Source: Cristatella mucedo (lineage: Eukaryota > Bryozoa > Phylactolaemata > Cristatellidae). From it: a stretch of 64,000 nucleotides of DNA. The stretch covers positions 7,684,001 through 7,748,000 of the forward strand of contig WPIO01000002.1 in assembly GCA_009760855.2 (NCBI GenBank). Reading direction: 5' to 3'. The translations under genes were made by a program, and so were the position numbers. Under the pieces are notes generated by a model, which was given only the letters and a program-made list of their open reading frames with translations, was not told where the DNA came from and searched no databases. Positions 11,885 to 50,745 of this stretch are shown here, one piece after another (within the stretch, counting starts at the first letter, position 1; the number at the start of each line of letters is the position of its first letter).

Positions 11885-13443
11885 TCACGAAGCGGCGGCG
11901 GCGGCAGCGCGCACCTTCGTCGGCTCGCCGCGGCGGCAGACCGCTCTTCTCTGCCTCTGCTCCGAGGCGGTAGCGCCGGCCAGCGCCGCCGCTTTCACGT
12001 CGCTTTCGAGTGCGGTCAGCCTCGCCTTCAGCGCTTTCTGATCGCGATCGTAATTGGACAGGAGGCCGCCGAACTTCGCCGCCGCGTCGGACAGGCTAGC
12101 CTCGAGCGACTCCAGCTTGTCCTCAACCGCGTCGCGAAGCGCGCCCCGCCGCCGCCGCCGCAGCAGCTGCTGCTGCTGCTGCCGCGGCGGCGGCCACCGG
12201 TGATCCGTCGCCGCGGCGGCGGTAAGGGTGGCGGTGGCGGCGGCGGCGGCGGCGCCGTCGAGGAGCTTGTTCTTCTCGAGGATGGCGCGCCCCTTCTCGA
12301 CCAGGCGCTCTCTCGCCTCCGGGTACTGCTCGAGCGTCTCCCACAGCTCGTCCTTGGCGAGCACGAGCAGGTCCGAGTAGCCGACGCTGCGTACGTTCGC
12401 CGTGCGCCGGTTGCCGCTCTCGCTGCCGCCCAAGTCGAGCACGCTCAGCTCGCCGAACACGGCGCCGGCGCCAAGCTCGGCGTAGCGCGTCCGCGCGTCG
12501 TCCGAGATCACGTGGAGCGTGCCGCCGCGCACGACGTACAGCTCGCGCCCGACGTCGCCCTTGCGGCACACGTAGTCGCCCGGGCCGTAGGCGCGCAGGC
12601 GCAGCCGCTGCGCCAGCTCGTGCACGAGGCCCGGCTCGCAGCCGCGAAGCAGCTCGACGCGCTCGAGCGCGCCGGCGTTCGCACGCGACGCGATCTCGGC
12701 GCGCAGGCGAGCCGGCAGCGCGCCGAGCAGGGAGCGCGCGCCGTCCTCGTCGTCCGGCGCTCGCCCGCTGCGCCGCGCGTAGTCGAACCACTCGAGGACG
12801 CGCCGCTCGACGGCGCGGCTGACGCGGTGCAGCCTCATGTACGCCTTGACGCCGTCGAGCTGCCGCTGTCGCGCGACGTCGCGCTGGCCGGCGGCGGCGA
12901 TCGCGCCGCTCACGCTGCCGACGATCACGGCGAACAAAAAGATGCCGACGGCGAAATTGGCCACGACCAGCGCGTACTCGACGTTCGTGCGCGGCAGCGG
13001 CGCCTCCCCGATTGTCGTCAGCGTCACGGTCGACCAGTAGAACGAATACGCGTAGCGCACGCTCAGCTGCGCCCAGCCGCCGACGCCGCTGCCGTTCACG
13101 GCCGGATAGACGAAAGCGTCCGAGCCGAGGCCGATCCAGCCGCTGAGCGCGTAGTACAGGCAGCCGTTCCAGTGTAGGACGAGAACGAGTTTGAGCAACA
13201 GCACGCCGATCCGGAACGCGCTCGGCCAGCGCGTCTTGGCCGCAGTGCGAGACGCGAACTCGTTCAGGCGCGTCACGCGCAGCAGACGATTCAGGCGCAG
13301 AGCGACCGCGTCGACGCCGACGAGTGCGTACGCCACGTCCGTTGGCAGCACGCTCAAGCCGTCGACGACGAGCTGCCAGCTGCGAGCGTAGCGCGCGGCC
13401 AGCGCGCGACCGTCGCTCACTAGGACGCCTTGGTGCAGGTAGC
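11885..13443 (-). CDS. CNG channel gene 1, terminal exon (S3 to C-terminus)
   Basis: Large 3' exon of a cyclic-nucleotide-gated cation channel. It begins after the acceptor CGTGCAG (13445-13444) with the second and third bases of a Gly codon and encodes about 518 residues: post-S2 GYLHQG, S3 with LPTD, S4 with LRLNRLLRVTRL, S5, the pore helix and filter TLTTIGEAP (filter at 13018-13004), S6, the C-linker, a cyclic-nucleotide-binding domain (PGDYVCRKGDVGRELY, FGEL, NRRTANV) and a C-terminal leucine-zipper-like helix (LLSNYDRDQKALKARLTALE). The filter has the pore glutamate and both threonines of CNGA principal subunits. At the alphaC position that is Asp in cGMP-selective CNGA1 it has Asn (ILEKNKLLD). 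Polyalanine and Gln/Arg runs precede the zipper. The product should be a plasma-membrane non-selective, Ca-permeable channel opened by cGMP or cAMP. Confidence 0.93.
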
Positions 13444-14694
13444 CTGCACGGGTAAGAGAAAGACACCGCGGGCACGGCGATTTTCGGGGCGCCGTCATAA
13501 GCACACTTTCCGTATTAATAATGGTAAGAATGGTAATGCACTTGATAAATCATTTGCTGTCGCCTCTACATCATTCTTAGTAAGGGTTGGGCCGAAAAAA
13601 TCCTAATATCGTGGCATTTTAAAATGTTTAAGCGTGCCTTATAGAAAACCAACAGCCGTATTGGATTACGCGGCTTGGATGACGTAGTAAAACTCAAATC
13701 TATTGGTGAGTCGCGAAGCGCCAGCATCAGGAATGCCCTAAATTGCCAACCCTACAATAATACCAAACCTCACCCTGGTTTCGCGAAAATTATTAACTCC
13801 GCCAATGGCCCGTCCTCTGTGAACGGTGGTTGTCAGCAAGGTCGTATCGTTGTGAGTTGGAGAAACCAACCTCTATACTTTCGGATCTACACACGCGAAC
13901 CCTCTGCGCGAGTCCTGTACGAAGTCATGTAGTAGAAGTGGAAGTCACGTAAACGGAAGTCATAGTTGATTCACTAGCGGCTGCTTACTGATAGTAAGAA
14001 AGCCCTCGTCAAGTTATTATGGTAAGCATTTACACGTTCCCTAATTAAGATAGCGCTAAACTGTTTCTCCCTCCTTTCTCTCTTCAAGGTAATGGTGCAA
14101 GAATTTTCTTTTCCGACAACTGTTTTATTGGAATGAATTCCGATTAAAATGAGCTAAGCGCGCCAGATAATATACGTAGCTATTGTGGGCAACAGTGCAA
14201 GAGACAAATAACGGAGAAAGCCAATGAGTGGTTGCGCTTTAGAAACTCAATGCGAACGCAACTCTCGTCAAACGGAGCAACTACAAGAGACCGCCACAGG
14301 AGAAGCCAATGAGCGTCGTCGCGGTTGTGAAGTTCGGATGGTACGCGACTATCGTCAACGTAACCTGGAAAACTCCTGTTTGTTTTCGTCACGACAGCTC
14401 TTTTTTACGCGAACGAAGATTCGTAGCTATGGCCTGATGAACATTGAAGGCCGGTGTTTCTATAGATTTGCTAAAGTAAATAAATATTCCGTTCGTGGAA
14501 ATGACTATTAAATTGGGCTTAGGTTTGCGTTCCGGCTACGAAGTTTCGGGTACGAAAGGTGACACGATCCGCTGGGATCGCTGAAGTAAGAGTCTCAGCT
14601 GCGCACGAGATGGGGGACAGCTTTTGTCCGCCAGCATCGTCCTCCGAAGCGTCCGCACGGCGCCCAATAAATAAGCTGCGCGACGCTCGCTCAC
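13444..14694 (-). other. Intron of CNG gene 1
   Basis: A 1251-bp phase-1 intron with donor GTGAGC and acceptor GTGCAG after a pyrimidine-rich stretch. It contains no recognised gene or repeat. Confidence 0.85.
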
Positions 14695-14906
14695 CGGTTC
14701 GCGCGTGCACGAAAGAGTCCAAGATGTACAGCGCGTCGCTGACGTAATCCAGCGCCATCCAGATGTAGCGATAATCTCGCTGCAGGTCTTGGAACGCCGA
14801 GCGAGCAACTACGATCACCCAGTTGTACAGAACCGGTATCGATATAACGCACAACCACGCGTAGCACGCCGCTCCCATCGGGTCCAGCACCCACCGAGCC
14901 GTCGAA
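14695..14906 (-). CDS. CNG channel gene 1, exon encoding S1-S2
   Basis: A 212-bp exon giving 70 codons plus split codons at both ends. It holds the pre-S1 WVLDP motif, S1 with CVISIPVLYNWVIVVAR, the linker FQDLQRDYRYIW, and S2 with LDYVSDALYILDSFVHARTG. Joining to the next exon restores HARTG-YLHQG without a break, the standard CNG S2-S3 link. The acceptor is TTTCTCGCAG at 14907, leaving one base of the first codon. The N-terminal exon or exons upstream (higher coordinates) were not found. Confidence 0.9.
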
Positions 14907-14934
14907 CTGCGAGAAACGCAAGACGTACGCACGT

Positions 14935-17436: not shown

Positions 17437-18600
17437 AGATATGCAAGGGTCACCTGTGGAGTTCCTCAAGGGTCTGTACTCGGTCCCTTGCTGTTCTCCA
17501 TGTATACACAACCTCTGGGAAAAGTGATTAAGGCCCATGGAATAGGATATCACTTCTATGCTGACGATACTCAGCTGTATTTGTCATTTAGACCGTCGGA
17601 ATCTGCTGCAGCAACTGAGAAACTGAATGCTTGCCTTGCCGATATTCGATCCTGGATGTCGGAAAACTTCCTGAATTTAAATGACGATAAAACCGAACTG
17701 CTGCTCATAGGATACCTTAAGCGTGTGGCTGGATTAAAAGGCTTTGCTGTTCTAATAGGTGATGCTATTGTGCGACCTTCACCACGTTCTCGTAATCTAG
17801 GTGTCGAGTTCGACAGCTGCCTCAATTTCAAAAGCTTCATTCAGAAGACTGTCTCTACAGCTAGCCATCACATCCTATCCCTATCCAAGATTAGAAGCTG
17901 TCTCAAACAGTGGCTTGTAAAAAGTTTAACTAGCTCTTTAGTTCTGTCTCGGCTTGATTATTGTAATTCCCTTTTGGCTGGGCTGCCAAAGAAAGCTATT
18001 ATGCCACTACAGCGGACTATGAATATGGCTGCAAGGCTGGTCTTCAAGTCCCAGCGGTTTGAGCACGTGTCACCTTTGCTGAAAGAGCTAGGATGGTTGC
18101 CGGTTGAGCAAAGGATACAGAGCAAAGTTCTTACGCTGACCCACAAGGCCCGCCACGGCTTGGCTCCTTCGTACCTAGCTGAACTGCTGCATCAGTTTCA
18201 GCCTGTTCTCGCCCTCAGGTCCTGTGTGGACAATAAATTAGCTGTCCCATTCCTCCGCTTAAAGACCGTTGGCGACAGAAGCTTTAGCTCTGCAGGTCCT
18301 TGACTGTGGAACTCGCTTCCACAATTCTTACGCAACGACAACTACTCTCCAACTGCCGACTATGACACATCTTTTTCAGCGGTCCTGAGCTGCTACTACT
18401 ATGCTACTCACTACCTCAACTGCTCTCCTGACTCTGCTATGCTTCCCACTTTCTATTTGTTGCGTGAGACAAAGTCTGTTGGCTACCGAATGCGTACCGA
18501 AAGCCGTTTAGGCTGTGAGTGCGCTATACAAAACTCTCCTGCGTAACACCCACATGGTCTTTATGATTTTGCGGAGTTACTGACGGAGATACATTATAAT
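17437..18600 (+). mobile_element. LINE family L2-B: reverse-transcriptase remnant
   Basis: A second L2/CR1-group family. The frame opens after a TGA near 17434 and reads through [13 protein letters not shown] (RT motif 4 region), then the catalytic [37 protein letters not shown] and [14 protein letters not shown] at about 18301 interrupts the frame just before the expected LWNSLP, which follows in the same frame. The endonuclease and N-terminal RT are absent. The 3' UTR ends with a '.gcgctatacaaaa' motif similar to L2 tails. It is a 5'-truncated, inactive copy. Confidence 0.9.
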
Positions 18601-25944: not shown

Positions 25945-27488
25945 TCAGCTCGCGGCGGCGACCTCCACCGAGCTGCCGCCGCTGTCCGCGGCGGTTGGCG
26001 GTGGCGGCGGCGGCGGTGCGCAGCGGACCTCGAGCCGTCGGCGGCGCTGCGCGGCCTCGAGTCTCTGCAGCCTCTGCGTCAGCTTTCGCTGCTGCCGCTC
26101 GTAGTCGTCGATCAAGCGCAGCAAGCGCGCGCTCACCGCCCTCACGGCGTCGTCAACGGCGCGGAGCGTCTCCTCGGGCGCAGCGGCCTCCGCTGCAGCG
26201 GAGCCGCCGCCACTGCCGCCGCCGGCGTCCGCCGCCGAGGCCGCCGCCGAGGCCGCAGCAGCGGCCGCGGACGGACGGAGGCGGCTCGCCGGCGCGTCGA
26301 TCGGACGGTCATCGCTGCGCAGCATCTCGCGAGCCCTGAGCGCTATCGCCTGCTTGGCTTCCGGGTAATCTTCGAGCGCCTCGAGCAGTGCCTCCCTGGT
26401 CAGGGCGTACAGGTCGGCGTAGCCGACGCTGAGCACGTTCGCCGCAGCTCGCCGGCCGCGTGCCGCCGCGCGGTCGCCCGGCGCGTCGAGGACGCCCAGC
26501 TCGCCGAAGACGGCGCCCTCGCGCAGCGTCGCGTACGCCTCACTGCCGTCGTCCGAGACGACGCTCAGCGTGCCGTGCTTGACGATGTACATCTCGCGCC
26601 CGACGTCGCCGCGCCGGCACACGTAGTCGCCGGGGCCGAACGCCTTCAGGCGCAGGCGCAGAGCCAGGCCGACGAGCAGCGCCCTCTCGCAGCCATCGAA
26701 CAGGCGCGCCTTCTCCAGCGCGCCCACGTGCGCGCAGACGGCCAGCTCCTCGCGCAGGCGCGGCGGCAGCGCGTCGAGCAGCCGGTCATCACCCAGGCTG
26801 CGTCGCGTCGACGCGACGTGGCCGAACCAGCGCACGGCGCGTCGCTCCAGCGGCGCGCCGACGCCGCGCCGCCTGACGTAGCGCTTGACGGCGTCTGCCA
26901 GCCGGCGCCGCTCGGCGCCGCGGCGGCCCATGGTCTGCAGCGCGCCGACGAAGCCGCCCACGAAGCTGGCGAGCAAGAGTATGCCCAGCATCGAGTTGGC
27001 GACGGTCAGGACGCACTCGAGGTCGTTGGTCGCCTCGAACGGCGCGCCGACGTTCGTCAGCATCACGACCGCCCAGTAGATGCTGTACAGGTACTGGCGG
27101 CTCAGACGTCCCCACTGGCCTGCGCCGCCGCTGCCGCTCGCGCCCCCCGGGTACACCCAGGCGTCCGAGCCCAGGCCGATCCAGCAGCTGACGGCGTAGT
27201 AGGCGCAGCCGTTCCAGTGCACGAAGACGAAGAGCCTGGCGGCCAGCGCGAGCAGTCGCGCCACGTTCGGCGCGCTGCTCGCGGCGGTCGTTCGCGCGGC
27301 GAGCTCGCCGAGGCGGCCGAACTTGAGCAGCCGATTGAAGCGCACCGCCGGCCGGTCGACGCCGACGGCGGCGTACAGCAGGTCGGTGGGCAGCACGCTC
27401 GCCAGGTCGACGGCGAACTGCCGGCTGCGCACGTAGCGCGCCGCCAAGATCTTGCAGTCCGTCACGAGCAGGCCCTCGTCGAGGAAAC
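25945..27488 (-). CDS. CNG channel gene 2, terminal exon; divergent pore, CNGB-like
   Basis: Terminal exon of a second CNG channel, about 513 residues from the acceptor TTCGAGCAG (27490-27489). It starts in the post-S2 segment GFLDEGLLVTD, then S3 (LPTDLLYAAVGVD), S4 (VRFNRLLKFGRL), S5, the pore, S6, the C-linker, a nucleotide-binding domain (PGDYVCRRGDVGREMYIVKHG, FGELGVLD) and a leucine-zipper-like helix (RLLRLIDDYERQQRKLTQRL). The filter reads TNVGA (27057-27043) instead of TTIGE, so the Ca-binding pore glutamate is missing, as in CNGB subunits. The phosphate-binding motif reads RRAAANV instead of RRTANV. The alphaC segment MLRSDDRP resembles the CNGB1 form MLRSNNKP. I infer a modulatory subunit that needs a partner such as gene 1 or 3. 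Confidence 0.9.
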
Positions 27489-27699
27489 CTGCTCGAACAA
27501 AATGGCGGCGATCGCTGGGGCGGCGGCGGCGGCAGGTGCTAGCAGCAAGCGGCAGCGGCAGAGGGGGCTGGGTGGGCGGAAAAGGGGCCCCGCCGCTCGG
27601 CTGAGAGAGTGCTAGTGCTGACCGACCGCGTTCGCGGTCAGGGTCTGCCTCGCCACCACAGCTGTATAGAAATATTCATGGATAAATATAGATAGATAA

Positions 27700-27704
27700 A
27701 CAAA

Positions 27705-27749
<45 letters not shown>

Positions 27750-27752
27750 TTT
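27700..27752. repeat. (TA)n microsatellite
   Basis: TA dinucleotides with one G interruption, followed by a T run and (CA)n. Confidence 0.95.
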
Positions 27753-27769
27753 TTTATACACACACATGG

Positions 27770-27880
27770 TGCACTTGCTTCGCTCGGTACACTTCCGTCA
27801 AGCGGCAAGATGGCGCATCACCGTCTTCCGTGACGGAACTACTATGACTCAGCGAAGCGAGTCTACAAGCAGTGAGCTGC
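27770..27880 (-). repeat. Interspersed repeat C, inverted copy
   Basis: Reverse complement contains 'gtagactcgcttcgctgagtcatag', 'agttccgt' and 'catcttgccgcttg', matching 6316-6400. Flanked by ATAG-rich simple sequence. Confidence 0.65.
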
Positions 27881-28986
27881 TCGCGATAGATAGATTGGAT
27901 AGATATAGGAAAATTGATTGCTGAGCGCGTCGTTGCAGTGGTCGGAGAAAACAGGGCTGGCATACTATACGCGTGGGTAAAATTGAAACTGGTGGGGCAT
28001 TGAGGGCTCAAAAAACAGCACAAAGTGAGAGATCGTCTTACTCATTTGCACTGTCTCAATAGTTTATAGTTCTGCAATAAGTTGCAATTTTTTAACTTAG
28101 AATATACGGCCGCCATTACTTCGTCACATGAGCTCGACGAAAACGCCCTTTCGGCTAACTCATTCCTCTCTCCAGCTAGATTTATTTTTAGCGCAAAATT
28201 GAATTCGGGCAATACTCAACCATCGATCCCTAACCCCGCAACGCTGATACTAAAAAAGTCTCGTTAGCCTAAACCTATATATTCTAAGCGTAACTTTTGC
28301 ATGACCGCAAGACAAGACTGGTGCTAGACGAATGAATCGCGGCGGGGAGTTGGCCACGCTGCCGCTCTCGCGCACAGACGCAACCGAGTAGACTCGAGCT
28401 TCCTCCAAGCGTCAAGTAGCGAGAAACGCATCGTCGGCTGCCACTTCTTGGGAAGTACTGTGCCCTGCTCGGAAAGTAGTGCTCGGTGCCGCACGACTGG
28501 GCACCGTCGAGTGCGCCGTACAAACAGGGAGGATTAGGATTAGGATTACTGCGCTTGCTGCGCTGCCGAGCAGCAGCCCTTTCGCTCGCTCTTCGAGCCA
28601 TCTGCGGCCAATGGCGAAAAATTCGTCGCTTCTTTTGTGCGCTTGGAAGCCGCAGTCGCAGGTTCTGACTTGTCGCGCTTTCGGTGTAATAACTTTTGAC
28701 GCGCCTAAAGTCCTGCCAGCCGCGTGCTCTTATCCCGCTTATAAAAAAATGCCAGCGCGACGTCTCTAAGCTAAAAAAACATGCGCATCATGTCAAAGCA
28801 AAAAACGCCCCGGAAATCTCTTAGACCGAACGATCTTGGCCAGTCGAGTGCGCGTTATTGCATGTCGGGAGCAGCTCGTGGAGCAGGAAATTTCCTGAGC
28901 ATAAATGGCGATAGCTTGAAATCGAAGCTACGACAGTCATACAGGCACTTGTGCTAGAGGGGGGCGCAACCCGGAGAGTAACTTAC

Positions 28987-29180
28987 CGGTTTTCGCGCGA
29001 ACCACGATGTCCGCGGCGTACAGGAGATCGCCAACGTAGTCTAGCACCAGCCACACCGTTCGGTAGCTGGTCTGCAGGTCAGTAAATGCGGACCTTGCGA
29101 CGATGAGCATCAAGTTGTACAAGACCGGACAGGATATTACGCAGAGCCAGCGGTAATACGTTGAGCTTCGAGGATCTATA
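28987..29180 (-). CDS. CNG channel gene 2, exon encoding S1-S2
   Basis: Encodes pre-S1 IDPRSSTYYRW, S1 with LCVISCPVLYNLMLIVAR, then FTDLQTSYRTVW and S2 with LDYVGDLLYAADIVVRAKTG. The donor ACCG|GTAAGT splits the Gly codon and joins to FLDEG in the next exon, giving RAKTG-FLDEG. The 3' boundary is firm. The 5' boundary is not: GGAAG at 29181 has the phase expected from genes 1 and 3 but a poor pyrimidine tract and gives a shorter pre-S1 segment; an acceptor about 55 bp upstream in the same phase is also possible. Confidence 0.87.
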
Positions 29181-36372: not shown

Positions 36373-37160
36373 CTAATAATAATAATAATAATAATAATAG
36401 TGCACTTGATAAAGCGCCCTTAGAGAACTCAATCTCTTTCTAGGCGCTTTACGTTTGCTTCAAAGGGAAACGCGACTGAATGGTGAGTAATATCATGCTT
36501 GATAAACAACAGGAATAACATGATTAGGGGTGACATGCACAGGGTCAGCATTAAAATGTGGTTAGTGGCAGCATGCACAGTGTCAGCACGCATAAGCACA
36601 TGAAGGATGGATCATAGGGACCCACTAAATCCAGTCCTAAATAGATGTGTTTTATAAGTTATTTTTAAATGTGGTCAGGTCAGGGGATGTTCTGACGCAA
36701 GTTGGGAGGGAGTTCCAGGCTTTGGGAGCTTACAAACTAAATGCGTGGTCTCCAAAGGATTTGAGGTTTGTACGAGGTATTGGTAGACTGTTGGATTCCG
36801 AAAAGCTGGTGGTACGCTGCCTGGCCTGGTGTGGGAGTAGATCTGAGAGATAGGCTGGAGCCACAGAATGAAGTGACCTAAAAGTGAGCGACAAAACCTT
36901 GAAGTCAATCCGTTGCTTGACTGGTAGCCAGTGCAGGTCGGCGAGAAGTGCTGTGATATGGCAACTGCGACGCTCACGACAGACAAGCCTAGCTGCGGAG
37001 TTTTGCACCAGCTGCAATCGCCTGATCGCACATGCCGGTAGGCCAGCAAGAAGCGAGTTACAGAAGTCAAGACGGGATGTCACAAATGCGAGCTCAACTG
37101 AGGCGTGGTATCCTTATCTAAATAAGCCCGAATTTTAGCAATGTTATGTAGCTAAAAGCG
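36373..37160 (-). mobile_element. L2-A LINE copy with coding remnant
   Basis: (AAT)n tail at 36377-36400. Minus-strand coding remnants 37083-36730 and 37070-36675 lie in two frames, so a frameshift separates [20 protein letters not shown]...DLLPHQA from the C-terminus. It lies in the proposed first intron of the B-box/NHL gene, on the opposite strand. Confidence 0.87.
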
Positions 37161-37412
37161 TGCGAAGCGAAATCCGTCCCCTACGCAACGGCTGTCGTTT
37201 GAAGCAGAGATGGCGGAGCCACGGTGAAGCGCGCGAGCTCTGATTTTCGAGCACCGAGAGCGGGAAAAGAGCGGCCGTCTCGCTGCCAGCTCTCGGTCGG
37301 AGCGCCGCGCGCGGCGCTCCGAGCGTCGGAGCGAGCCGTGCGTTTGTCACGTAGGCTCCGCTCGAGCGGCCGGCTGAGTGCTTCGGCGCGGTCTTCCGCG
37401 CGTGCGCTGTAG

Positions 37413-37652
37413 AGCGCAACGGTCTCAGTGAGCTACTGTCGCGAGTGTGGCGACGCGCTGTGCGCGTCGTGCAGCTACTGCCACACGCGGACGAAGCAGA
37501 CCGCGGACCACGCGCTCGTCGCCCTCGCCGCCCGCGGCGCGCGCTCGGACGGCAGCAGCGGCGCACTGATGGCGCCCTGGCGCCGGCGGTGCAAGCCTTG
37601 TGGAGTTCACGTCGACAAGATGCTGGAAGCCTACTGCTTACCGTGCACCAAG
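37413..37652 (+). CDS. B-box/NHL (TRIM-like) gene, exon a: B-box 1 and start of B-box 2
   Basis: First confidently coding exon of a TRIM-family gene with NHL repeats (TRIM2/3, Brat and Mei-P26 type). These proteins act as ubiquitin ligases and/or mRNA-binding repressors. The exon holds B-box 1, YCRECGDALCASC with following His residues (CHTRTKQTADH), and begins B-box 2, CKPCGVHVDKMLEAYCLPC. The acceptor is CGCTGTAG (37411-37412), chosen over a nearer CTCAG because it is phase 0 like the other 5' introns and the candidate upstream exon; the donor is AAG|GTTAGA. Exons a-h join in frame to about 661 residues and end with a Tyr-Gln-Tyr-Leu motif like the VYRYLQ end of TRIM2/3. No RING exon was found, so the N-terminus is incomplete or the protein lacks a RING. 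Confidence 0.85.
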
Positions 37653-37972
37653 GTTAGAGAGCGTAAGTTTGGCGAGCAGCACCAATGTATCCGGCTGGCG
37701 GTTCGCCAGCGCCGCCGCCGTCATCGCCGTCGAATTAACGGCCGCCGGCGCTGCGGGCTTCGGCCGGCTGGCGATGCTAGTTTTGCAGCGGAAAGGTCGC
37801 GTTCGCGACTACCGGTGGCGAACCGGTCGTCGGCTCATCCGGTTGAATTTTTTTTTTTTAGCACCGCTCGTCCTCTCGGGCGAGCTCGCGCTCGATCCGC
37901 GCGCGCTTCCGGCGATTTCCTGACTACTGCTGCGGCTACTGGCGGCGACGCTCTCGCTCGGCGTCGCTTCAG

Positions 37973-38134
37973 ATGATCTGCCTTCAGTGCAAGCTGCTCA
38001 CGCACGGCGCGCACCTGTGCACCGACCTGGAGCCGGCCGGCGAAGAGCAGCGCCGGCGAATCAGAGCTCGCGTCGCGCGCCTTCGCCACGACGTCATGGT
38101 CGAAGCCGACGAGACCGTGCGCGAGTGCCGAGAG
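37973..38134 (+). CDS. B-box/NHL gene, exon b: end of B-box 2 and coiled coil
   Basis: Begins after GCGTCGCTTCAG and completes the zinc-binding set of B-box 2 (ICLQCKLLTHGAHLC), then enters a charged helix (EEQRRRIRARVARLRHD). Donor GAG|GTAGGC. Both ends are phase 0. The B-box 2 split by this intron reads continuously only after joining exon a, which supports both junctions. Confidence 0.88.
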
Positions 38135-38324
38135 GTAGGCGCCGGCGGCGGCGAGCCGGCGAGTCGAGGTGACTCGCCGTTGCGGCCGCCGTCTCTGTAA
38201 GGCCAAGGAATAGCACGTGGCATGAAGAGAAGCCTTCGTCGAAGTCTTCTTCTTAGCTTCCACTGCAGCGGCGGCGACGGCGACGGCGACGCGGCCGTAG
38301 CCGTTTTCGGCGCGGCGATTGCAG

Positions 38325-38477
38325 AGCTTAAAGGACGCTGACAGTCACCGACTCGCTACGCTTGAGCGCGTCGCGGAGAGGAGACAGTGCATGCAGCGAC
38401 AGCTCGTCGCCTACTCGGCGGCCCTCGAATCGCAGCTGTGCGCTCAGTACGCTCAGTACGAGGAGCGGATCGCCCAG
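38325..38477 (+). CDS. B-box/NHL gene, exon c: coiled coil
   Basis: A 51-codon phase-0 exon, acceptor GATTGCAG and donor CAG|GTAACG. It continues the B-box C-terminal coiled coil (RLATLERVAERRQCMQRQL, then ALESQLCAQYAQYEERIAQ). Confidence 0.85.
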
Positions 38478-38821
38478 GTAACGCCCGATGCTCCGACGCT
38501 GCTCTCTCGCCGCGCTCTCGTCGACTCTCGTCGTTGAAGACCTGGAGACTGCGCACTGGGCGCCTCCCTCTCCTCCCAGCTGCGAGCCGTGGCTCTGGCG
38601 TTGCGAATCCGCAGCTCTCTCACTGCCCGCACTCGACCACCAGGCACCGTGCTCCTCGTCGACTTTGGCTGTAACTGTATTGCGGCAACCGCCGCCTTCG
38701 CCTTCGCTCCTCCACCCTGCCGCCGGCGCCGCCGCTGTTGATAGCATTGCTGCTGTCAGCACTTCTGCCTGCATCCACTTCTGCCTGCATCGAAACGTCG
38801 CCGCCGTCACCACCGCTGCAG

Positions 38822-39065
38822 ATTATCGAGGACGTGTCAGAGCAGCGCGGCGACCTCGAGGCGCTGGCGCTCGAGTCGGAGCGCCTGCTGGACGGCGCGA
38901 GCGACGACGAGCTGCTAACGGTCAAGGCCGCGTACGACGAGCGGTGCGAGCGGACGCTGGAGCGCTGGAGGCGGCCCGTCGTGCCGCGCACGGAGCACGC
39001 GCACTTCTACGCGTCGCAGGCTGGCAGCCAGGCCGTCAGCATCCTGTTCGGCAGCTTCGGCCGAG
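38822..39065 (+). CDS. B-box/NHL gene, exon d: end of coiled coil
   Basis: Starts IIEDVSEQRGDLEALALE and runs to SILFGSFGR. Acceptor CCGCTGCAG, donor GAG|GTCGGC (weak), phase 1. The helix pattern ends near WRRPVVPRTEHAHFYAS. Confidence 0.82.
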
Positions 39066-39208
39066 GTCGGCGGCGGTGGCGTCGGCGTCGGCGTCGGCGC
39101 GGCGCAGCGAGAGCGAGCGCGCGAGAGCATCCCGCGGCGGCGCAGGCCGGTTCCTCGCACGCTCGATCGCTCGCGCCTGCCCCGAACCGCGCACTCGCTT
39201 TTTTTCAG

Positions 39209-39580
39209 ACGTCTCGGAAGAAGCCGGTGGTGGCGGCAGCAGCGAGCTGGCTTTCCACTCGCAGCTTCGACGCGCGCCGGAAGCCGATGGTCGACTGCCG
39301 CACCTGTCCAAGTCGGGACGGATCTACGACTATCAAGTCGCCTTGGCCAAGGGAGAGTGCCAGACGGACGCGATTGCGACGAGAGACGTGGACGGCGTCG
39401 GCGATGCGTCCGCAGGCCACCTCGCGGCAGCGATCTCCTCACTCGATTCGCCGCCGCCGGCGGCCGTCGAGGCGATTCGTGCGAGCAATCGCGGCCGCGA
39501 GCGCTCGTCGACGGCCAAAGCGCGCTCGCTCAAAGTGATCGGCATGCCCGTGCTCGTCAACTGCCGGTCGCTGCGCGACG
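39209..39580 (+). CDS. B-box/NHL gene, exon e: linker
   Basis: Acceptor TTTTTTTCAG, donor ACG|GTGAGT, both phase 1. Low-complexity linker (GGGGSS, PPPAA) with an island GRIYDYQVALAKGECQTD, ending VIGMPVLVNCRSLRD. No filamin repeat can be recognised, unlike TRIM2/3, so the architecture is closer to Brat or Mei-P26. Confidence 0.78.
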
Positions 39581-39716
39581 GTGAGTGTGGGCAGCAGCCG
39601 CCGTCGTCGCCTTCCACGCTTCCGCCACCGGGGCGTAACCGTGCGTGCGTGCGGTGCGTCCGCCGCCGCCGCCGCCAGCGACGAATCCTTGGATGGAGGA
39701 TCGAGAATCGCTAGAG

Positions 39717-40480
39717 AGTGAGAGAGAGAGAGAAACAGACAGACAGAGACAGACAGAGACAGACAGAGACAGACAGAGACAGACAGAGACAGACAGAGAC
39801 AGACAGAGACAGACAGAGACAGACAGAGACAGACAGAGACAGACAGAGACAGACAGAGACAGAGACAGAGACAGAGACAGAGACAGAGACAGAGACAGAG
39901 ACAGAGACAGAGACAGAGACAGACAGAGACAGACAGAGACAGACAGAGACAGACAGAGACAGACAGAGACAGACAGAGACAGACAGAGACAGACAGAGAC
40001 AGACAGACAGACAGAGACAGACAGAGACAGACAGAGACAGACAGAGACAGACAGAGACAGACAGACAGAGACAGACAGAGACAGACAGAGACAGACAGAG
40101 ACAGACAGAGACAGACAGAGACAGACAGAGACAGACAGAGACAGACAGAGACAGACAGAGACAGACAGAGACAGACAGAGACAGACAGAGACAGACAGAG
40201 ACAGGCAGAGACAGGCAGAGACAGGCAGAGACAGGCAGAGACAGGCAGAGACAGGCAGAGACAGGCAGAGACAGGCAGAGACAGGCAGAGACAGGCAGAG
40301 ACAGGCAGAGACAGGCAGAGACAGGCAGAGACAGGCAGAGACAGGCAGAGACAGGCAGAGACAGGCAGAGACAGGCAGAGACAGACAGAGACAGACAGAG
40401 ACAGACAGAGACAGACAGAGACACAGAGAGAAAGAGAGACAGAGAGACAGAGAGACAGAGAGACAGAGACAGACAGACAG
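39717..40480. repeat. ACAGACAGAG decanucleotide satellite with a variant block
   Basis: Mostly 10-bp units ACAGACAGAG. About 39859-39918 is an ACAGAG hexamer block. 40201-40380 is exactly 18 consecutive units of the variant ACAGGCAGAG, after which the standard unit resumes. Confidence 0.97.
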
Positions 40481-40785
40481 ACAGACATAGAGGAAGAGAG
40501 AGTGAGAGAGAGAGTTAAAAAGAAAGAGGGTAAGAGAGAGGAAGATATATAGATTGAGACAGAGAGACAGAGAGACAGACAAATAGACATATATAGAGAG
40601 CGAGTGAGATTACGAGAGAAAGAGATTCAGAGATTAAGAGAGAGGAAGGGAGTAAGAGAGAGAGAAAAAGAGAGTAAGAGAGAGGAAGAGAGTAAGAGAG
40701 TAAGAGAGTAAGAGAGTAAGAGAGAGAGAAAAAGAGAGTACGAGATATTAAGAGAGAGAAAGTAAGAGAGAGAGAGAGAGGGGGG
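40481..40785. repeat. (GA)n / (GAGTAA)n tract
   Basis: Purine-rich continuation of the satellite with GAGAGTAA-type units. Confidence 0.93.
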
Positions 40786-40995
40786 AGAGGCTCGTTAGCA
40801 CGCGCTTGAAGCTGCAAGCTGCGAGCGAATTAGCCACCCGCTTGGCTCGACTCACTCCAGCAGTACCGGCTCGCGGTCAACGCTGATCGCTGCGCGAGCT
40901 GGCAGCAGCAGCAGCAGCAGCAGCGCGAGCAGCGGCAGCGGGGCGCTCGTTGCTTGCTTGTTGCCGACGCCTTCCGCTTGCACTTGCCTCCGCAG

Positions 40996-41261
40996 GCTCG
41001 GTCACGCACCTTGCCGTGGCTTCGAGCGGCGACCTGATCGCGGCCGTCTTCCTCCGAAGCCGGGCGTCGCTGGGAGTGCCGGCTGTGGATCGCGTTCGCG
41101 TGCTGACGCTGGCGCCGAGCGGAAGCGTCAGCGGCGAATTCAGAGCTGGCTCCGCCATCTACGGTCTCGCGGCGGGGCCGGATGGACAAATTGTGACGTC
41201 CGGCGGAGGCATCGGGCCGGACTCGAAGAGGATAAACGTGTACACGTCGGCCGGGCAGCTG
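40996..41261 (+). CDS. B-box/NHL gene, exon f: first NHL blades
   Basis: Acceptor TGCCTCCGCAG, donor CTG|GTGAGC. Encodes beta-propeller-like repeats: SVTHLAVASSGDLIAA, then AIYGLAAGPDGQIVTSGGG and RINVYTSAGQL, which fit the NHL pattern (hydrophobic-A-hydrophobic, DG, hydrophobic strand, V-x-V-hydrophobic-G). Enters in phase 1, leaves in phase 0. Confidence 0.85.
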
Positions 41262-42098
41262 GTGAGCGAACGCGCCGCCGACACTTGCACAGTCGAAGCC
41301 CGCGCGCGCTTTCGTGAGTAGTTCTGCACGCGTCGTTTTCGCAGTCGTCAGTCGGGCTTGTGCTCTTGCTTCCATCGGCAGCTATTTGCATGCCATCATC
41401 TGGCTAGGCGATCGCGAGTAGAAAGTAAAAATCTCTGGACGCCACTAGGCGACGGTGGCCTGTGTCCACATTCCTCGCGAAGCGCCGAAAGAAAGTCGGC
41501 TAACGTTGAGGCAGTGCGACGATGCAAGTCTGCATCGGGACGGAATGTCAAGTCTGCGGCTGCGTCGCCAGCTGAGGATCGTAGATGCTACTCTCGCTAT
41601 GCTTCGGTCGCTCGGTCGACGGTGACTGAGGACTGAGGTTGGGGTCAAAGGGCGATGGGCGAGGCCGCCTCGCGCGCGCCCCTGTGAAGGGGTGTGCGAG
41701 ACGACGGCGCATCCTCCGGCAGCACATACGTCGTACTGCGCGCGCGCTGAACCTGAGCGTCTCGCTATTTTCTTGCAGTGGCTCTCGCTCCCACGAAAGC
41801 GCTCGCTGGCGAGCGCTCGCCTGCCGCGGCAGCGCGCGCGGCGATGAGCGTCGGGTGAGACGCGAGAGGGGTCGACGAGCGAGCGCGAGCGGGCATAGCA
41901 GCGCCGGCCAGTGCAACTCTGCAGGTCCGTTGCCGCTCTTGCGTTCGTCCTCGTCATTCGAGCCGTCGGCGATCTGTCCACCATAGCGCGCGCCCCCTCC
42001 CCCAGCTGTAGTTGTTTTCGTGACGGGCTGCAGATCCGCCGCCGGTCTTTGTAGATTCGCCTTGTGCAGCAGCGTCGCGCAGCAGCTGCTGAGCTTGC

Positions 42099-42137
42099 GC
42101 TCTGCTCAGCAGCTGCGTCGCAGCTGCTGAGCAGAGC
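42099..42137. repeat. Perfect 39-nt palindrome, 30 bp upstream of a 3' splice site
   Basis: Two perfect 19-nt arms (left arm GCTCTGCTCAGCAGCTGCG) around a single T at 42118. A partial extra copy of the arm core lies at 42080-42094. Just upstream of the acceptor for exon g. Confidence 0.96.
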
Positions 42138-42167
42138 TCCTTTAACCGACCGCACCGATCGCCGCAG

Positions 42168-42405
42168 AGCTTGACGATGCGGTGCGCTGGCGACGTCGGA
42201 GGGGTGGCGATCAGCCAGTCTCGCCACGTGGTTGCCGCCGTCGGAAGTCAAATCGTCGCCTACTCGCTGGAGTGCGGGAGCATGAGCTGGGCATTCGACG
42301 ACGATGCCGTCGGGCCGAACGATTACAACGAGCTGCGCAAGCAGCTGGCCATCGGACGCCATGACGAGGTGTACGTGTCCGACCCGAACACGAGAAGCGT
42401 GAGAG
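42168..42405 (+). CDS. B-box/NHL gene, exon g: middle NHL blades
   Basis: Acceptor GATCGCCGCAG, donor AGAG|GTGAAA. Reads SLTMRCAGDVGGVAISQSRH, then VVAAVGSQIVAYSL and RHDEVYVSDPNTRSVR, the last matching the outer strand of an NHL blade. Phase 0 in, phase 1 out. Confidence 0.83.
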
Positions 42406-42789
42406 GTGAAACGCCGCGACGGCGAGCGATCGCGCGCGACGGTGAGCGATCGAGCCTCCAATACCCTGCCGCGAGAGTGGGGTTGAAATGAAGCGGAGCC
42501 GCGGCTTCGCGGCGAATTCGCGCTCCGCTTTAACAGCTCTTCCACTGCTCATACGCGGTAGCTTGCGCCGACGAGTCGCTATGTTCCACTCCACTGCAGC
42601 TGTGCCCTATTCTTTTTCATCACATTTGCTGAGTTCAGGCGCTACGGTTTGAAGAGCGGAGCTCTTTGTATCCGCCATTTGCATACTTTGGTACGGCTCT
42701 TCTCAACGGAATCGTGACGCAAGGTCAAGTTCTCAGAGATGACGAACGTGTAGCCGTCTGCGAGTTACGCTCCGCCGAATCAATTAGCA

Positions 42790-43470
42790 GATTGTACACG
42801 TAATAGTAATGAAATAGTAATAATGAAATAACAATAATAATGTAATGAAATAGTAATAATAATGTAGCACCTGCATTGCGCTCTAAGAGAACTAAGACTC
42901 GTTTTAGGCATTTTAAATACGCTGGAAAGTAAGCAAGAGAACTGATTAGGATAGTACCCCCAACTAAAGCACGGATAAGCGCACAAAGGACAATTAATGC
43001 TGATGGAGAAAATTCTGTGAGGATCAGATGAACTTACAGCTTCCATTTAGATATCGACAGGTCAGGGGATGTCACGATCTCAGTCTGTAGTTAGTTTCAG
43101 GCTTTGGGAGCATAAAAAATGATGGCACTATCGCCAAAGGATGTGAGGTTGACTAGCGGCATAGCTACGAGACTGAGTCAGGAGAGCCGGCGGTACAAAT
43201 GTGAAGCTGCTAAAGAAGTACTTCCTATAACTAGGCCGGAGCAACAGAATTGACGGACCAAAAACGACAAACAGAAATGTGAAGTAGATAACCTGCTTGA
43301 TAGGGAGCCGGTGCAGACAGGTGAGAAGTGATTAAATTGGCTGGTGGGGCATTTACGACAAAGAATAATCTCTTCCTATGCACTTAGCACATTCTGGAAA
43401 AGAAGAATTTCTATTGATTAGTGATAAAATTTACACTCTTTAGTAAGGACGAGAATATGTAGGAAAATTC
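42790..43470 (-). mobile_element. L2-A LINE copy, heavily degraded
   Basis: Recognisable from AAT triplets at 42840-42865, 'gcgctctaagagaactaaga', the 'gggatgtcacgat...gtttcaggctttgggagc' segment and 'ggagccggtgcagacaggtgagaagtg'. No usable frame. Confidence 0.72.
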
Positions 43471-43713
43471 GCACAGACGACATCTCATCTGCGGCCTTAG
43501 CAATGTGTTAACTACGGTTAAGTGACCCGGGGAGCTTCGTGTTGCTCCCTAAGCAACATTTAGCATCTAATTCACCCGGGTTGCTACAGGCGCGACAGTC
43601 GTCGCAATGATGCTACCGTGTTCGTTTCTTGTAGTTTCAAGAATAACAAGCCGGAGAAGACTTTATTTTGAAGCCTGTATAACTTTACTGTCTCTTTGAC
43701 CACCATGTAAAGC

Positions 43714-43727
43714 ATGAGAGAGAGAGA

Positions 43728-43783
<56 letters not shown>
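43714..43783. repeat. (GA)n microsatellite
   Basis: Nearly pure GA dinucleotides, about 70 bp. Confidence 0.97.
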
Positions 43784-43786
<3 letters not shown>

Positions 43787-44082
43787 GTTTAAGCATCCAC
43801 CGAGAATTCTATTGCCTACGTTCAATATCCGCCAGTTAAAGTACAGCAAGCTCATCCGGAATCGTCGCTAGCAAAATTAAAACGCGTGATCATAGCAGAG
43901 GCAGCGGTTCCTGCTACCGCTTGTTCTCGCAAATAGTTTTGAGAACATCGCAGCTGCTGCCGCTAGAGCGAGGCTCGCTGTTCGCTCACGCTCTGCCTCG
44001 TTCCGGAGCGCGTCCCGGTCGGCTCTCGCGTTCGGCGCGAGCGCACTCGCGTAACCGGCGCGGCGCACCGTTTTCTGTGTAG

Positions 44083-44393
44083 GTTACACTCAGCTTGGAG
44101 AGCCGATCTTCGAGTACGGCACCCGCGAAGGGGGCGCCGAGATGGTCTTCCGCCCGCGAGCGCTCTGCGTCGATGCCTACGGCCACGTGATCGTAGCGGA
44201 CGCCGCCGTCGGCCGGCTGCACGTTCTGTCGGCAAAAGGTGCCTTTCGCTGCACGCTGCTTGACGAGCGATCGGGAGGGCCGCTTCTCAAGCCGCCGCGA
44301 TCCGTGGCGGCAGTCGACCAGACGTGCTTGGCGGTCGGCTTGCACGCCGCCGGCGAGCTTCGGCTGTATCAGTATCTCTTCGACGAACGGTGA
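44083..44393 (+). CDS. B-box/NHL gene, last exon: C-terminal NHL blades
   Basis: Acceptor TTTTCTGTGTAG, then GYTQLGEPIFEYGTREGG and a textbook NHL repeat, FRPRALCVDAYGHVIVADA followed by VGRLHVLSAKGAF. It ends ELRLYQYLFDER-stop, equivalent to the C-terminal strand that closes the propeller in TRIM2/3 (VYRYLQ). TGA at 44391-44393. Confidence 0.92.
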
Positions 44394-46864: not shown

Positions 46865-47739
46865 ATGCACTTTTAGCTGAAGACCGTACAGCCACTCTCT
46901 GTGTCGGTTAGGCTCTTCCTCTTTGAAACTTTGGCAGCCACTGCTGAGGTGGGCTACCGGGCTTACTGGGTGCTAAAGCGGGTAACTTTCTTTGCGGCGC
47001 GCCGCTTCAGCGCTTGCCTTCAAGTAGGGGGCTGAAGTCGAGGCCAACCAACCCCTAACCCGTCAGCGAGCCTGGACAAGCCAGTGCTAATGATGCGGCT
47101 CTTCTATCGCGGCGACATCGGCGACATCGGCGAACGGAGGACAGCGATAGCGACAGAGCAGCGAGGCCGTCTGCGTCCTTACGGCGGCGCTGGCTTATGG
47201 CTGCCGCCGCCCGCCGCCCATCAATCGCCAGCGCCGCCACTTCCGCCGACCGCCGCGCGCGTGCGACGCACGTCGGGCTTAATTGAAATCGCGCTCGGAA
47301 ACGAGGCATCGATTCGCCGCGGCGAGCGCGCTGGTAATATCCTAACTTCTAACGAGGAGGCTTAGCGTCGTCGCTGCGTCGGCTGCTGCTGCCCCTGCTG
47401 CCCCTGCTGCTGCTGCTGCTCCTTCGACCGTCGGCGAGCGTCCCTCGAGGCGCGAGCGGCTGCTGCGAGCGTCAGTGGGCCGAAGGAAAGCGTCGCCCGC
47501 ATCGATTGGCGGCGGCGGTGCGGTGGAGATCGAGGGCAGGAGCGCGGCTGTAGCGTCGCGACGGGACGTCGCGCGATCGCCGCAGTTTCTCAGTCGCCAC
47601 ATGGCGGCGCAGCCGAGCGCCAGCGGCGCCGTCCTCGAGGTGAGGCGCTCGCGCGGTCAGTGCCGACGGGCGGAGCCGGCAAAGGGCTACGTACGGGCGT
47701 CGACGCGGAGCGCGGCCGCCCCCACCTGGGCGCCGCTCA

Positions 47740-47790
<51 letters not shown>

Positions 47791-48880: not shown

Positions 48881-48940
48881 ATGATTGTCTATGCATGCGT
48901 CTACCATACTCTCGTATCAGGGTGTATTGTTGCTGCTTAG

Positions 48941-49155
48941 GTCAGCCATTTTGCGCGACGTATTGGATTCTGCCGACGGAGTTTACGGGGCGTGGCTGGT
49001 GGTAATATCCATACCAGTGCTTTACAACGTCTTTGCCCTGACGGCTCGATGCACTTTCGAAGAAATTCAAACTCTTCATAGGCCCGTCTGGATCGCTTTG
49101 GACTACATCAGCGACCTGCTTTACCTGATCGACATTGTCGTCAACCTGAGGACAG
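48941..49155 (+). CDS. CNG channel gene 3, exon encoding S1-S2
   Basis: Follows a good acceptor, TTGTTGCTGCTTAG (48939-48940), and contributes the last base of a split codon, the phase seen at the matching exon of gene 1. Encodes VLDSADGVYGAW, S1 with LVVISIPVLYNVFALTAR, FEEIQTLHRPVW, and S2 with LDYISDLLYLIDIVVNLRTG. The exon ends ACAG|GCAAGT: the expected split Gly codon is kept, but the donor is GC rather than GT. Confidence 0.88.
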
Positions 49156-49345
49156 GCAAGTTGTAAGCTGAAAGCGAAATGAAAAGGTTGTGAAGCGACT
49201 CCGCAGATCCGCGGCGGCTGCTCAGACTCGCGCCAGCGAGCCGGTCGAACGCGCTTGCATCCAGCAGCCTCGACGTGCGTGCGCGCGCGCGCGACCCTGG
49301 GGTTCTGTATCGCGTCAATCGCGCGCTCCGCGTCGTTCCGTCTAG
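49156..49345 (+). other. GC-AG intron of CNG gene 3
   Basis: A 190-bp intron starting GCAAGT and ending TTCCGTCTAG. GC donors are normally followed by AAGT, as here. No in-frame GT donor nearby preserves the S2-S3 join. Confidence 0.85.
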
Positions 49346-50745
49346 GCTATCTGGAGAACGGGCTATTCGTGAGAGATCGGTGGCGCGTGGCGCGCCGCTA
49401 CGTGCGCAGCCGGGCGTTCGCGGCCGACGCGCTCGCCGTGGCGCCGACCGACCTGCTGTACGCGGCGTGGGGCGTCGACTGCGTCGCGCTGCGACTCAAC
49501 CGGCTGGTCAAGGTCGGCCACGTGCGCGCGCTGCACGATCGCTCGGCGATGGCGACGCGTTACCCGAACGTGCTTCGCGTCGGCGCGCTGATAGGCGTGG
49601 TGGCGACGCTACTGCATTGCCTGGGCTGCTCTTACTACGCGCTGAGTGGTGCGATCGGCTACGGCTCGGACGCCTGGGTGTATCCGAGCGTCGGCGACCC
49701 GCAGTGGTCGAGCCTGACGCGCAAGTACATCGTCTGCTTCTACTGGGCCACCGAGACGCTGACGGCCATCGGCGAGGACAACCAGCCCGTCAAAGACGTC
49801 GAGTACGCGCTCGTCACCGTCCTCTACGTGGTCGGCGTGTTCGCGTTCGCCAGCATAATCAGCAGCATGAGCACTACGATTGCCAGCATGAACGCGGAGG
49901 AGGAGGACTTGCGTCGCCAGCTGGGCGCCGCCAGGCAGTGTCTCGAGCGGCAGCGACGCGCCGCCGGCGCCGGCGGCGGCGACGCCGCGCTCGCCGCCAA
50001 AGTGACGCACTGGTTCGAGCACGCGCGCGTCACGCGCAGCTCGCCCAACGAGGAGGAGGCGGCTGCGGCGGAGGCGCTCGGCGCGCTGCCTGACGGGCTG
50101 CGCGCCGAGATCGCCGAGCGCGTGCACGCCGACGCGCTGCGCAAGGTGAAGCTGTTCGGCGACGGCCTCGAGCCGGGCCTGCTGCGCGCTCTCTCGCTCA
50201 AGCTGCGGCCCAGCGTGTACGGCCCGGGCGACTACGTTTGCCGGCGCGGCGACGTCGGGCGCGAGATGTACGTCGTCAAGGAGGGCCGCCTCGAGGTGGT
50301 GTCCGACGACGGCGCGCAGACGTCTCTCGCGGCGCTCGGCGAGGGCAGCGTCTTCGGCGAGCTGAGCCTGCTGAGCGTCGCCGGCAGTCGCGCGGGCAGC
50401 CGGCGCACGGCGAACGTGCGCAGCGCCGGCTACAGCGCCCTGTTCGCCCTGTCCAAGGGCGACCTGCTCGACGCGCTGCGCGACTACCCGGACGCGCGCG
50501 CGCTGCTCGTCGACCGCGCAGCGGCCACGCTGCGCAAGGACGGCCTGATCGACGAGGCGGCGGCGGCGGCCGAGCGCGAGCGGCGCGCCCGGCTCGACGG
50601 CAGGGCGGAGGCGCTGCTCGGAGCGGCCGACGCGCTCGCCGTGCGCGTCGCGCGCCTGCTCGCCGACTACGAGGCGCTGCACGGCAAGCTGAAGGCGCGC
50701 GTCCGCTCGCTCGAGATCGCCTACGGCCTCGCGTCCGACGACTGA
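49346..50745 (+). CDS. CNG channel gene 3, terminal exon; TAIGE filter
   Basis: About 465 residues: GYLENGLFVRD, S3 (APTDLLYAAWGVD), S4 (LRLNRLVKVGHV), S5 (LLHCLGCSYYAL), the pore with filter TAIGED (49762-49779), S6, the C-linker, a nucleotide-binding domain (PGDYVCRRGDVGREMYVVKEG, FGELSLL, SRRTANVRSAGY) and a C-terminal zipper-like helix (RLLADYEALHGKLKARV). It keeps the pore glutamate and the Arg-Thr pair, and has Asp at the alphaC selectivity position (RKDGLID), so a cGMP-responsive principal-type subunit is likely. The second filter residue is Ala where nearly all CNGA channels have Thr. The terminal exon is shorter than in genes 1 and 2, lacking their polyalanine inserts. Confidence 0.93.

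What the first reader, a model, noticed from the sequence alone, without database searches (positions are those of the whole stretch)
11885..50745. Three CNG channel paralogues in one window with three different selectivity filters
Seen: genes 1 (-), 2 (-) and 3 (+) have filters TTIGE, TNVGA and TAIGE at the same pore position. Known: nearly all CNGA subunits have TTIGE, and CNGB subunits lack the glutamate that binds Ca. Inferred: the locus is a lineage-specific channel expansion in which one copy stayed canonical, one lost the pore acid and one changed the second filter residue, so heteromers with distinct Ca permeability may form.
Basis: partly seen in the sequence, partly recalled or inferred. 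Interest (0 to 1): 0.78.

Follow-up and report, generated by a model that had tools for sequence, protein, structure and literature searches.

The report
Three neighbouring, diverged sensory ion channels
An unidentified animal carries three neighbouring copies of a cyclic-nucleotide-gated channel gene; one looks ordinary, one has gained a charge beside its pore, and one has lost both its calcium-handling residue and the residues that grip the signalling molecule, as if it had become a helper subunit.

Summary
Three open-framed CNGA-type genes lie in 39 kb, with filters TTIGE (g1), TNVGA (g2) and TAIGE (g3). Each has a six-segment channel core, a cyclic-nucleotide-binding domain and the CLZ coil of classical CNGA, with one shared intron position. 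They form one clade in all four trees that hold all three (e.g. bootstrap/SH-aLRT 100/99). A search of the held 572-Mb assembly with g1 found no other close copy. A lineage-specific expansion is therefore likely, but branches are very long, and g3 alone drifts to vertebrate CNGA4.

The filters are only part of it. g2 has also lost the three residues that contribute most to calculated cGMP binding in CNGA1 (S548G, R561A, T562A; R and T kept in 127 of 127 homologues, S in 126) and the upper cavity-gate Phe. g3 has Glu at the pore-helix position where CNGB has Lys/Arg (0 of 127). TAIGE occurs in 4 of 127, TNVGA in none.

Best reading: g1 is a principal cGMP-gated subunit, g3 a variant with a more acidic pore mouth, g2 a CLZ-bearing modulatory subunit that binds Ca2+ and cGMP poorly. 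Assembly, expression and physiology are untested. Novelty: new variant of a known kind.

The parts
14695..14906 (-). g1 exon with S1-S2 (5' acceptor boundary inferred)
   Evidence: acceptor CGCAG, donor GTGAGC; Ion_trans 20.4 bits, below the Pfam cut-off of 25, on the surrounding ORF
13444..14694 (-). g1 intron, phase 1, 1251 bases, GT-AG
11885..13443 (-). g1 main exon: rest of the channel core, C-linker, CNBD, CLZ, stop
   Evidence: Pfam Ion_trans, cNMP_binding, CLZ
13004..13018 (-). g1 selectivity filter TTIGE
28987..29180 (-). g2 exon with S1-S2 (5' boundary least certain of the three)
   Evidence: 56.5% identical to g1 over 69 aa that reach slightly past the donor; no Pfam match alone
27489..28986 (-). 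g2 intron, phase 1, 1498 bases, GT-AG
25945..27488 (-). g2 main exon: rest of the channel core, C-linker, CNBD, CLZ, stop
27043..27057 (-). g2 selectivity filter TNVGA (acid and threonine lost)
26434..26508 (-). g2 phosphate-binding cassette: S548G, R561A, T562A plus a 3-residue insert
   Evidence: residue roles from PMC11027099 (passages)
48941..49155 (+). g3 exon with S1-S2 (5' boundary inferred)
   Evidence: Ion_trans 19.4 bits, below the Pfam cut-off of 25, on the surrounding ORF
49156..49345 (+). g3 intron, phase 1, 190 bases, GC-AG
   Evidence: starts GCAAGT, ends TCTAG; this donor keeps the frame and the phase of the other two genes
49346..50745 (+). g3 main exon: rest of the channel core, C-linker, CNBD, CLZ, stop
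49762..49776 (+). g3 selectivity filter TAIGE
49753..49755 (+). g3 pore-helix Glu at the position of CNGB3 R403 / CNGB1 K841
   Evidence: Glu in 0 of 127 homologues; position from R403 and T407 being four apart, role from PMC10761061
11999..12130 (-). g1 CLZ coiled coil (approximate)
26050..26181 (-). g2 CLZ coiled coil (approximate; exactly at the Pfam cut-off)
50590..50721 (+). g3 CLZ coiled coil (approximate)

Best explanation
A CNGA gene duplicated twice in this animal's lineage, giving three neighbouring genes that encode CLZ-bearing CNG subunits (shown: structure and clade; inferred: lineage-specific timing). g1 kept the filter, the cavity gate and the main ligand contacts of a cGMP-gated, Ca-permeable principal subunit (shown by sequence). 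g3 kept the main nucleotide contacts but lost the filter threonine hydroxyl that helps form the lower Ca2+ site, and gained an acid at the pore-helix position that points to the filter mouth, so it should bind or pass Ca2+ differently (inferred). g2 kept the domain layout and the assembly coil but lost the filter acid, the upper cavity-gate Phe and the three main cGMP-binding residues. It most likely works as a modulatory subunit inside heteromers with g1 and/or g3, lowering Ca2+ affinity and contributing little ligand binding (inferred).
For: Domains and CLZ. CNGA/TAX-4 far above CNGB. Same phase-1 intron in all three. One clade in all four trees with all three: SH-aLRT 100 (98 rows); bootstrap/SH-aLRT 100/99 (52 rows); SH-aLRT/bootstrap 91/97 after Dayhoff-6 recoding; SH-aLRT 99 with other CNG pieces of the same genome added. 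Four residues shared by all three are present in at most 3 of 127 others; five hand-picked control triples, each with one or two window genes, share 0-1. No other close copy in the assembly in a search with g1 or within 100 kb on either side. g2 losses at positions conserved in 126-127 of 127. Role of S548, R561 and T562, and the reported large affinity loss when the Arg is replaced (PMC11027099, passages). Role of the filter Glu, of T362 and of K841/R403 (PMC10761061, section). CLZ forms CNGA trimers (PMC10761061, passages). GC3 of 0.89-0.90 in all three genes.
Against: g1 is no more alike to g2 or g3 (46-48%) than to an armadillo CNGA3 (48%), so the duplicates are old or very fast. Long branches of odd composition can attract each other. 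g3 alone groups with vertebrates, beside CNGA4. Two of the four rare shared residues are Ala and Gly, which GC-rich composition favours; pairs of the genes share 10-16 further rare residues, so some convergence is likely. Pairwise synonymous and non-synonymous differences are both high and near each other (pS 0.39-0.44, pN 0.36-0.39), so present-day constraint on g2 is not shown. g2 has a 3-residue insert beside R561/T562, so an Arg-Arg pair one residue upstream might still serve. g1 is not wholly canonical: Asn where 93 of 127 have Asp in the C-helix, Val for Leu in the pore helix. No transcript data. Whether the genome has a CNGB partner was not established.
Confidence: 0.58

Rival explanations
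1. g2 is a gene on its way out: still open-framed, but its pore and ligand pocket drift because nothing depends on them any more.
For: Largest number of departures from near-invariant columns: 18 for g2, against 13 for g3 and 10 for g1. Longest branch of the three. pS and pN are uninformative. CLZ only just at the cut-off.
Against: No stop over the two exons, and GT-AG splice ends. GC3 0.895, identical to g1. 38 of 44 columns that are invariant in 126 homologues are kept; g1 keeps 41, g3 40. 582 bits to a CNGA profile against 674 and 606.
Confidence: 0.17
2. The three genes are expressed in different cells and each forms its own homomeric or CNGB-partnered channel, with no mixing among them.
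For: Two genes on one strand and one on the other, so no sign of shared transcription. Lagman et al. 2022 report non-overlapping peak CNG expression in sponges and ctenophores (PMC9803222, discussion part 1).
Against: g2 lacks main residues that a homomer would need to answer cGMP. All three keep CLZ, which forms CNGA trimers. CNGA4 sets the precedent for a CNGA paralogue that works only in heteromers (PMC10761061, passages).
Confidence: 0.25
3. The three copies belong to ancient, separate CNG classes and only happen to be neighbours.
For: Identity between them is no higher than g1's to outsiders. g3 alone goes to vertebrate CNGA4, SH-aLRT 90.
Against: All have CLZ, reported only in classical CNGA (PMC9803222). 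One clade in all four joint trees. With CNGA4 removed, g3 falls to an unresolved base of bilaterian CNGA. Holding g3 with 8 vertebrate rows is rejected, AU p 0.0077, group named after the fact.
Confidence: 0.06

Closest known systems
Classical CNGA subunits (vertebrate CNGA1-3, C. elegans TAX-4, Drosophila CNGA)
   Same: Six-segment core, C-linker, CNBD; CLZ as in vertebrate CNGA1-3; best sequence match; g1 keeps the filter, both cavity-gate residues and the main ligand contacts
   Different: At most 48% identical for g1; three neighbouring copies; g2 and g3 altered in the pore, g2 also in the ligand pocket
Vertebrate CNGA4
   Same: A CNGA-derived, CLZ-bearing paralogue with a changed filter (TVGD) that works only in heteromers (PMC10761061; PMC12549891; passages)
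   Different: CNGA4 keeps an acid in the filter, and the CNGA4 rows keep the R and T of the pocket; g2 has none of these. g2 groups with g1 and g3 when all are present, not with CNGA4
CNGB1/CNGB3
   Same: Filter without the acid (Gly in CNGB, Ala in g2); a modulatory role is inferred for g2
   Different: CNGB has no CLZ and has an arginine gate (PMC10761061); g2 has CLZ and Val at the arginine-gate position and is closer to CNGA
CNGK repeats (zebrafish, sea urchin sperm)
   Same: CNG-type nucleotide-binding domains reported as not used, one with Ala for the conserved Arg (PMC4749565, passages)
   Different: Pseudo-tetrameric K+-selective proteins, not separate CLZ-bearing subunits; the authors say no sequence feature unequivocally explains the zebrafish channel's loss of nucleotide gating

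Membership tests
CNGA (classical) | Ion_trans + cNMP-binding + CLZ domain architecture | tested here: met
   All three genes; g2 CLZ exactly at the cut-off
CNGA (classical) | Falls inside the CNGA tree | tested here: met
   with C233 and C667 as root the trio lies within a 36-row group (SH-aLRT 84). No CNGB or named CNGC-F row was in the trees
CNGA (classical) | TIGE filter with the pore glutamate | tested here: inconclusive
   g1 yes; g3 keeps Glu but T to A; g2 has neither. Usual in CNGA but not defining: CNGA4 has TVGD
CNGA principal, cGMP-gated subunit (functional class) | Phosphate-binding S, R and T of the CNBD | tested here: inconclusive
   Met in g1 and g3; not met in g2, so g2 is not filed as a principal subunit
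CNGA principal, cGMP-gated subunit (functional class) | Forms cGMP-activated homomers | not testable with these tools
   Needs expression and patch clamp
CNGB | No CLZ; Gly in filter; Arg gate in S6 | tested here: not met
   CLZ present in all; filter acid position is E, A, E; arginine-gate position is S, V, S
CNGC-CNGF (Lagman 2022) | CNGA-like, without CLZ | tested here: not met
   CLZ present in all three; class definition from PMC9803222

The most novel reading that the evidence does not exclude
g2 is a CLZ-bearing CNGA subunit that has been stripped of both of its chemistries, the filter acid and the nucleotide phosphate-binding residues, while g3 gained an acid exactly where CNGB carries a base. 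The locus would then have evolved its own principal, modulatory and charge-tuned subunits side by side, with g2 standing in for CNGB or CNGA4 as a ligand-blind helper that enters at fixed stoichiometry through CLZ.
Probability: 0.38. Interest if true: 0.72.

Novelty: new variant of a known kind. Interest (0 to 1): 0.55.

Why it matters
How many subunits of a CNG tetramer must bind cyclic nucleotide, and how the charge ring of the filter sets Ca2+ flux, is usually studied with engineered mutants (recalled). This locus offers a natural set of three paralogues that differ at exactly those sites, including a natural loss of the three main calculated cGMP contacts in one CLZ-bearing subunit. If expressed together, they would show a second route, besides CNGB and CNGA4, by which animals build modulatory CNG subunits.

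Tried and rejected
Rejected: CNGB identity for any window gene. Ancient separate classes (see rivals). Chance open frames (domains, splice sites and clade). Haplotype or assembly duplicates (45-48% identity).

Led nowhere or weak: the protein search with g3 returned nothing, probably because its Ala/Arg-rich words filled the candidate list (inference); g2's returned 7 proteins. Pairwise Nei-Gojobori counts look saturated. AlphaFold models of g2 (mean pLDDT 78.5, pTM 0.49) and of g1 as control (79.7, 0.54) show CNG-like secondary structure. The phosphate-cassette blocks at model residues 331-350 are less sure in g2 (54, 57) than in g1 (77, 65). This is weak evidence, because the insert alone could cause it. 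In the Foldseek list for g2 (50 shown of 1060) CNG channel chains come first, but with TM 0.32-0.43 and rmsd of 11.6 or more, so domain packing was not reproduced. In the tree the C33 piece did not stay with the other outgroup pieces but fell among CNGA rows on a branch of 4.54, so its place is unknown; I left it out. Paper searches showed no title or abstract start on such a trio or on a ligand-blind CNGA subunit: 20 of 35 listed; 20 of 35; 2 of 2; 3 of 3; 8 of 73; 8 of 33. That is no proof of absence, since lists were cut and most subscription papers are not held. A term search of PMC3871463 for filter mutants gave none. The species was not identified.

Whole-genome counts rest on two answered searches. 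(Ion_trans) is dominated by other channels and scored 150 of 312 candidates. (g1 protein) scored 36 of 36 candidates and listed 10 matches. A CLZ-family scan, a CNBD-family scan and a g3 protein scan of the genome did not complete, so the presence of CNGB and the absence of very diverged CNGA copies remain open.
Full report
What is there. The window encodes three CNG channel genes in 38.9 kb. Each has an exon with S1-S2 and a long last exon that runs from the S2-S3 linker to the stop codon (segment names by analogy with CNGA, recalled). The exons are joined by a phase-1 intron at the same codon: TG|YL in g1 and g3, TG|FL in g2. The g3 intron starts with GC, not GT (GCAAGT...TCTAG, 190 bases). 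Pfam finds Ion_trans, cNMP_binding and CLZ in all three. A tblastn search of the window shows no further fragment at E 1e-3. None was found in 100 kb on either side.

Filters. Alignment puts TTIGE, TNVGA and TAIGE in the same columns. Among 127 homologues TTIGE is seen in 110, TAIGE in 4, TNVGA in 0. The four TAIGE rows are unnamed proteins from sources marked lgn or ena. Together with an SAIGD row they form a supported group inside a group of chelicerate sequences, so the second-position change arose more than once. The survey leans towards TTIGE, because 120 of the 127 rows came from a search with g1, of whose 254 hits 120 were listed.

Class and ancestry. All three score far higher against solved CNGA and TAX-4 chains (318-414 bits) than against CNGB (156-221 bits). 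CLZ is reported only in classical CNGA (PMC9803222, results part read). The three form one clade in the 98-row quick tree (SH-aLRT 100), in the 52-row careful tree (bootstrap/SH-aLRT 100/99), after Dayhoff-6 recoding (SH-aLRT/bootstrap 91/97; order of the two values checked), and when rooted by two other CNG genes of the same genome (SH-aLRT 99). g1 and g2 are sisters in the careful tree (97/92). No CNGB and no named CNGC-F sequence was at hand for the trees.

Controls on the tree. All three rows are long and of unusual composition. Placed alone, g1 and g2 go, with support of 84-93, to the part of the tree that holds the protostomes (g2 again), but g3 goes to the vertebrates: without the mixture model, and beside the fast CNGA4 rows with it (SH-aLRT 90). 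Without CNGA4 it falls to an unresolved base of bilaterian CNGA. Holding g3 with the 8 vertebrate rows is rejected (AU p 0.0077), with the caveat that I chose that group. Four residues are shared by all three and by at most 3 of 127 others; five hand-picked control triples share 0 or 1. Two of the four are Ala and Gly, and pairs of the genes share 10-16 further rare residues, so composition may play a part. I judge common descent after the split from other sampled lineages likely, but its date is unknown. The trio is no more alike internally than g1 is to an armadillo CNGA3.

Rest of the genome. The window is part of a held assembly of 572,011,866 bases in 688 contigs. The search with g1 lists 10 matches. 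Three are the window genes. The other seven lie on C33 (three), C233 (two) and C667 (two) and, by their spacing of 13-19 kb, look like exons of three distant CNG-type genes. C33 has filter TTTGG and an intact NRRTA motif; C233 and C667 have TTIGD. The four pieces tested are closer to CNGA than to CNGB in sequence. CLZ was not tested in them, and they are partial. They may belong to the CNGC-F classes, but this was not tested. In the tree C233 and C667 are sisters, while C33 fell among CNGA rows on a very long branch. No CNGB was recognised, and the family scan that could settle it did not complete.

What changed in g2. CNGA1 numbering and residue roles are from PMC11027099 (passages), where R561, T562 and S548 are the three largest contributors to cGMP binding by calculation. 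g2 has G at S548, A at R561 and A at T562. R and T are found in 127 of 127 homologues and S in 126. g1 and g3 keep all three. Both MAFFT and a profile HMM place a 3-residue insert just upstream. An Arg-Arg pair one residue away might slide into place, but S548 and T562 are lost in either reading. g2 also has Leu at the upper cavity gate (Phe in 125 of 127), and Ala and Asn in the filter. The filter glutamate is needed for Ca2+ flux and block, and the filter threonine forms the second Ca2+ site (PMC10761061, section read). So g2 should bind neither ligand nor Ca2+ well. It retains the CLZ, which forms CNGA trimers (PMC10761061, passages), though only at the Pfam cut-off.

What changed in g3. 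The main ligand contacts are intact (I602 is Thr, as in 15 of 127). The filter threonine is Ala, the lower gate is Ile (as in CNGB), and the residue four before that threonine is Glu. In CNGB3 this position is R403 (T407 being the threonine) and in CNGB1 K841, basic residues that project towards the filter entrance and are argued to weaken Ca2+ binding. Glu occurs in 0 of 127 homologues there. The charge change is opposite to that of CNGB.

g1 is close to canonical but not perfectly so: Asn where 93 of 127 have Asp in the C-helix, and Val for Leu in the pore helix.

Mechanism. Shown: gene structure, domains, clade, residue states. Inferred: g1 as principal subunit, g3 as a Ca-tuned variant, g2 as a modulatory subunit that joins through CLZ. 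Precedents are CNGA4, a heteromer-only CNGA paralogue (PMC10761061; PMC12549891, passages), and CNGK repeats whose CNBDs are reported as non-functional (PMC4749565, passages). The main rival for g2 itself is that it is decaying. It has the most departures from near-invariant columns (18, against 13 and 10), yet open frames, splice ends, GC3 and 38 of 44 invariant residues are kept. Substitution counts look saturated and cannot decide.

Verdict. The more interesting content is the combined loss in g2 and the charge gain in g3, which the filter sequences alone did not show. This is a new variant of a known family, not a new kind of system.

Noticed in passing
window 49156-49345 (+): The g3 intron is a GC-AG intron (GCAAGT...TCTAG), while the matching introns of g1 and g2 are GT-AG.
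   Followed up: partly
window 5362-5892 (+): Open frame with a histone-fold match (75.8 bits), H2B-like by eye, with a long Ala/Lys-rich N-terminal part.
   Followed up: partly
window 17437-18303 (+), 1001-1762 (-), 8614-9129 (-), 36730-37113 (-): Reverse-transcriptase-like fragments; RVT_1 confirmed only for the first. The second gave no Pfam match, and the others were judged by eye.
   Followed up: partly
window 10363-11547: Long 4-base repeat tract that reads as GRQA repeats on + and CLPA repeats on - in all frames, right beside the end of g1.
   Followed up: no
window 37355-44393 (+): Open frames between g2 and g3 that looked like B-box and NHL pieces by eye; four tested frames gave no Pfam match.
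   Followed up: partly
L036 (G000:C33:2347624-2351262): A distant CNG-type gene in the same genome with filter TTTGG, two glycines and no acid; a nearby piece, L032, has an intact NRRTA cassette.
   Followed up: partly
P0041, P0066, P0071, P0104, P0089: A group of unnamed CNG proteins inside chelicerate sequences with TAIGE (four) or SAIGD (one): an independent change at the same filter position.
   Followed up: partly
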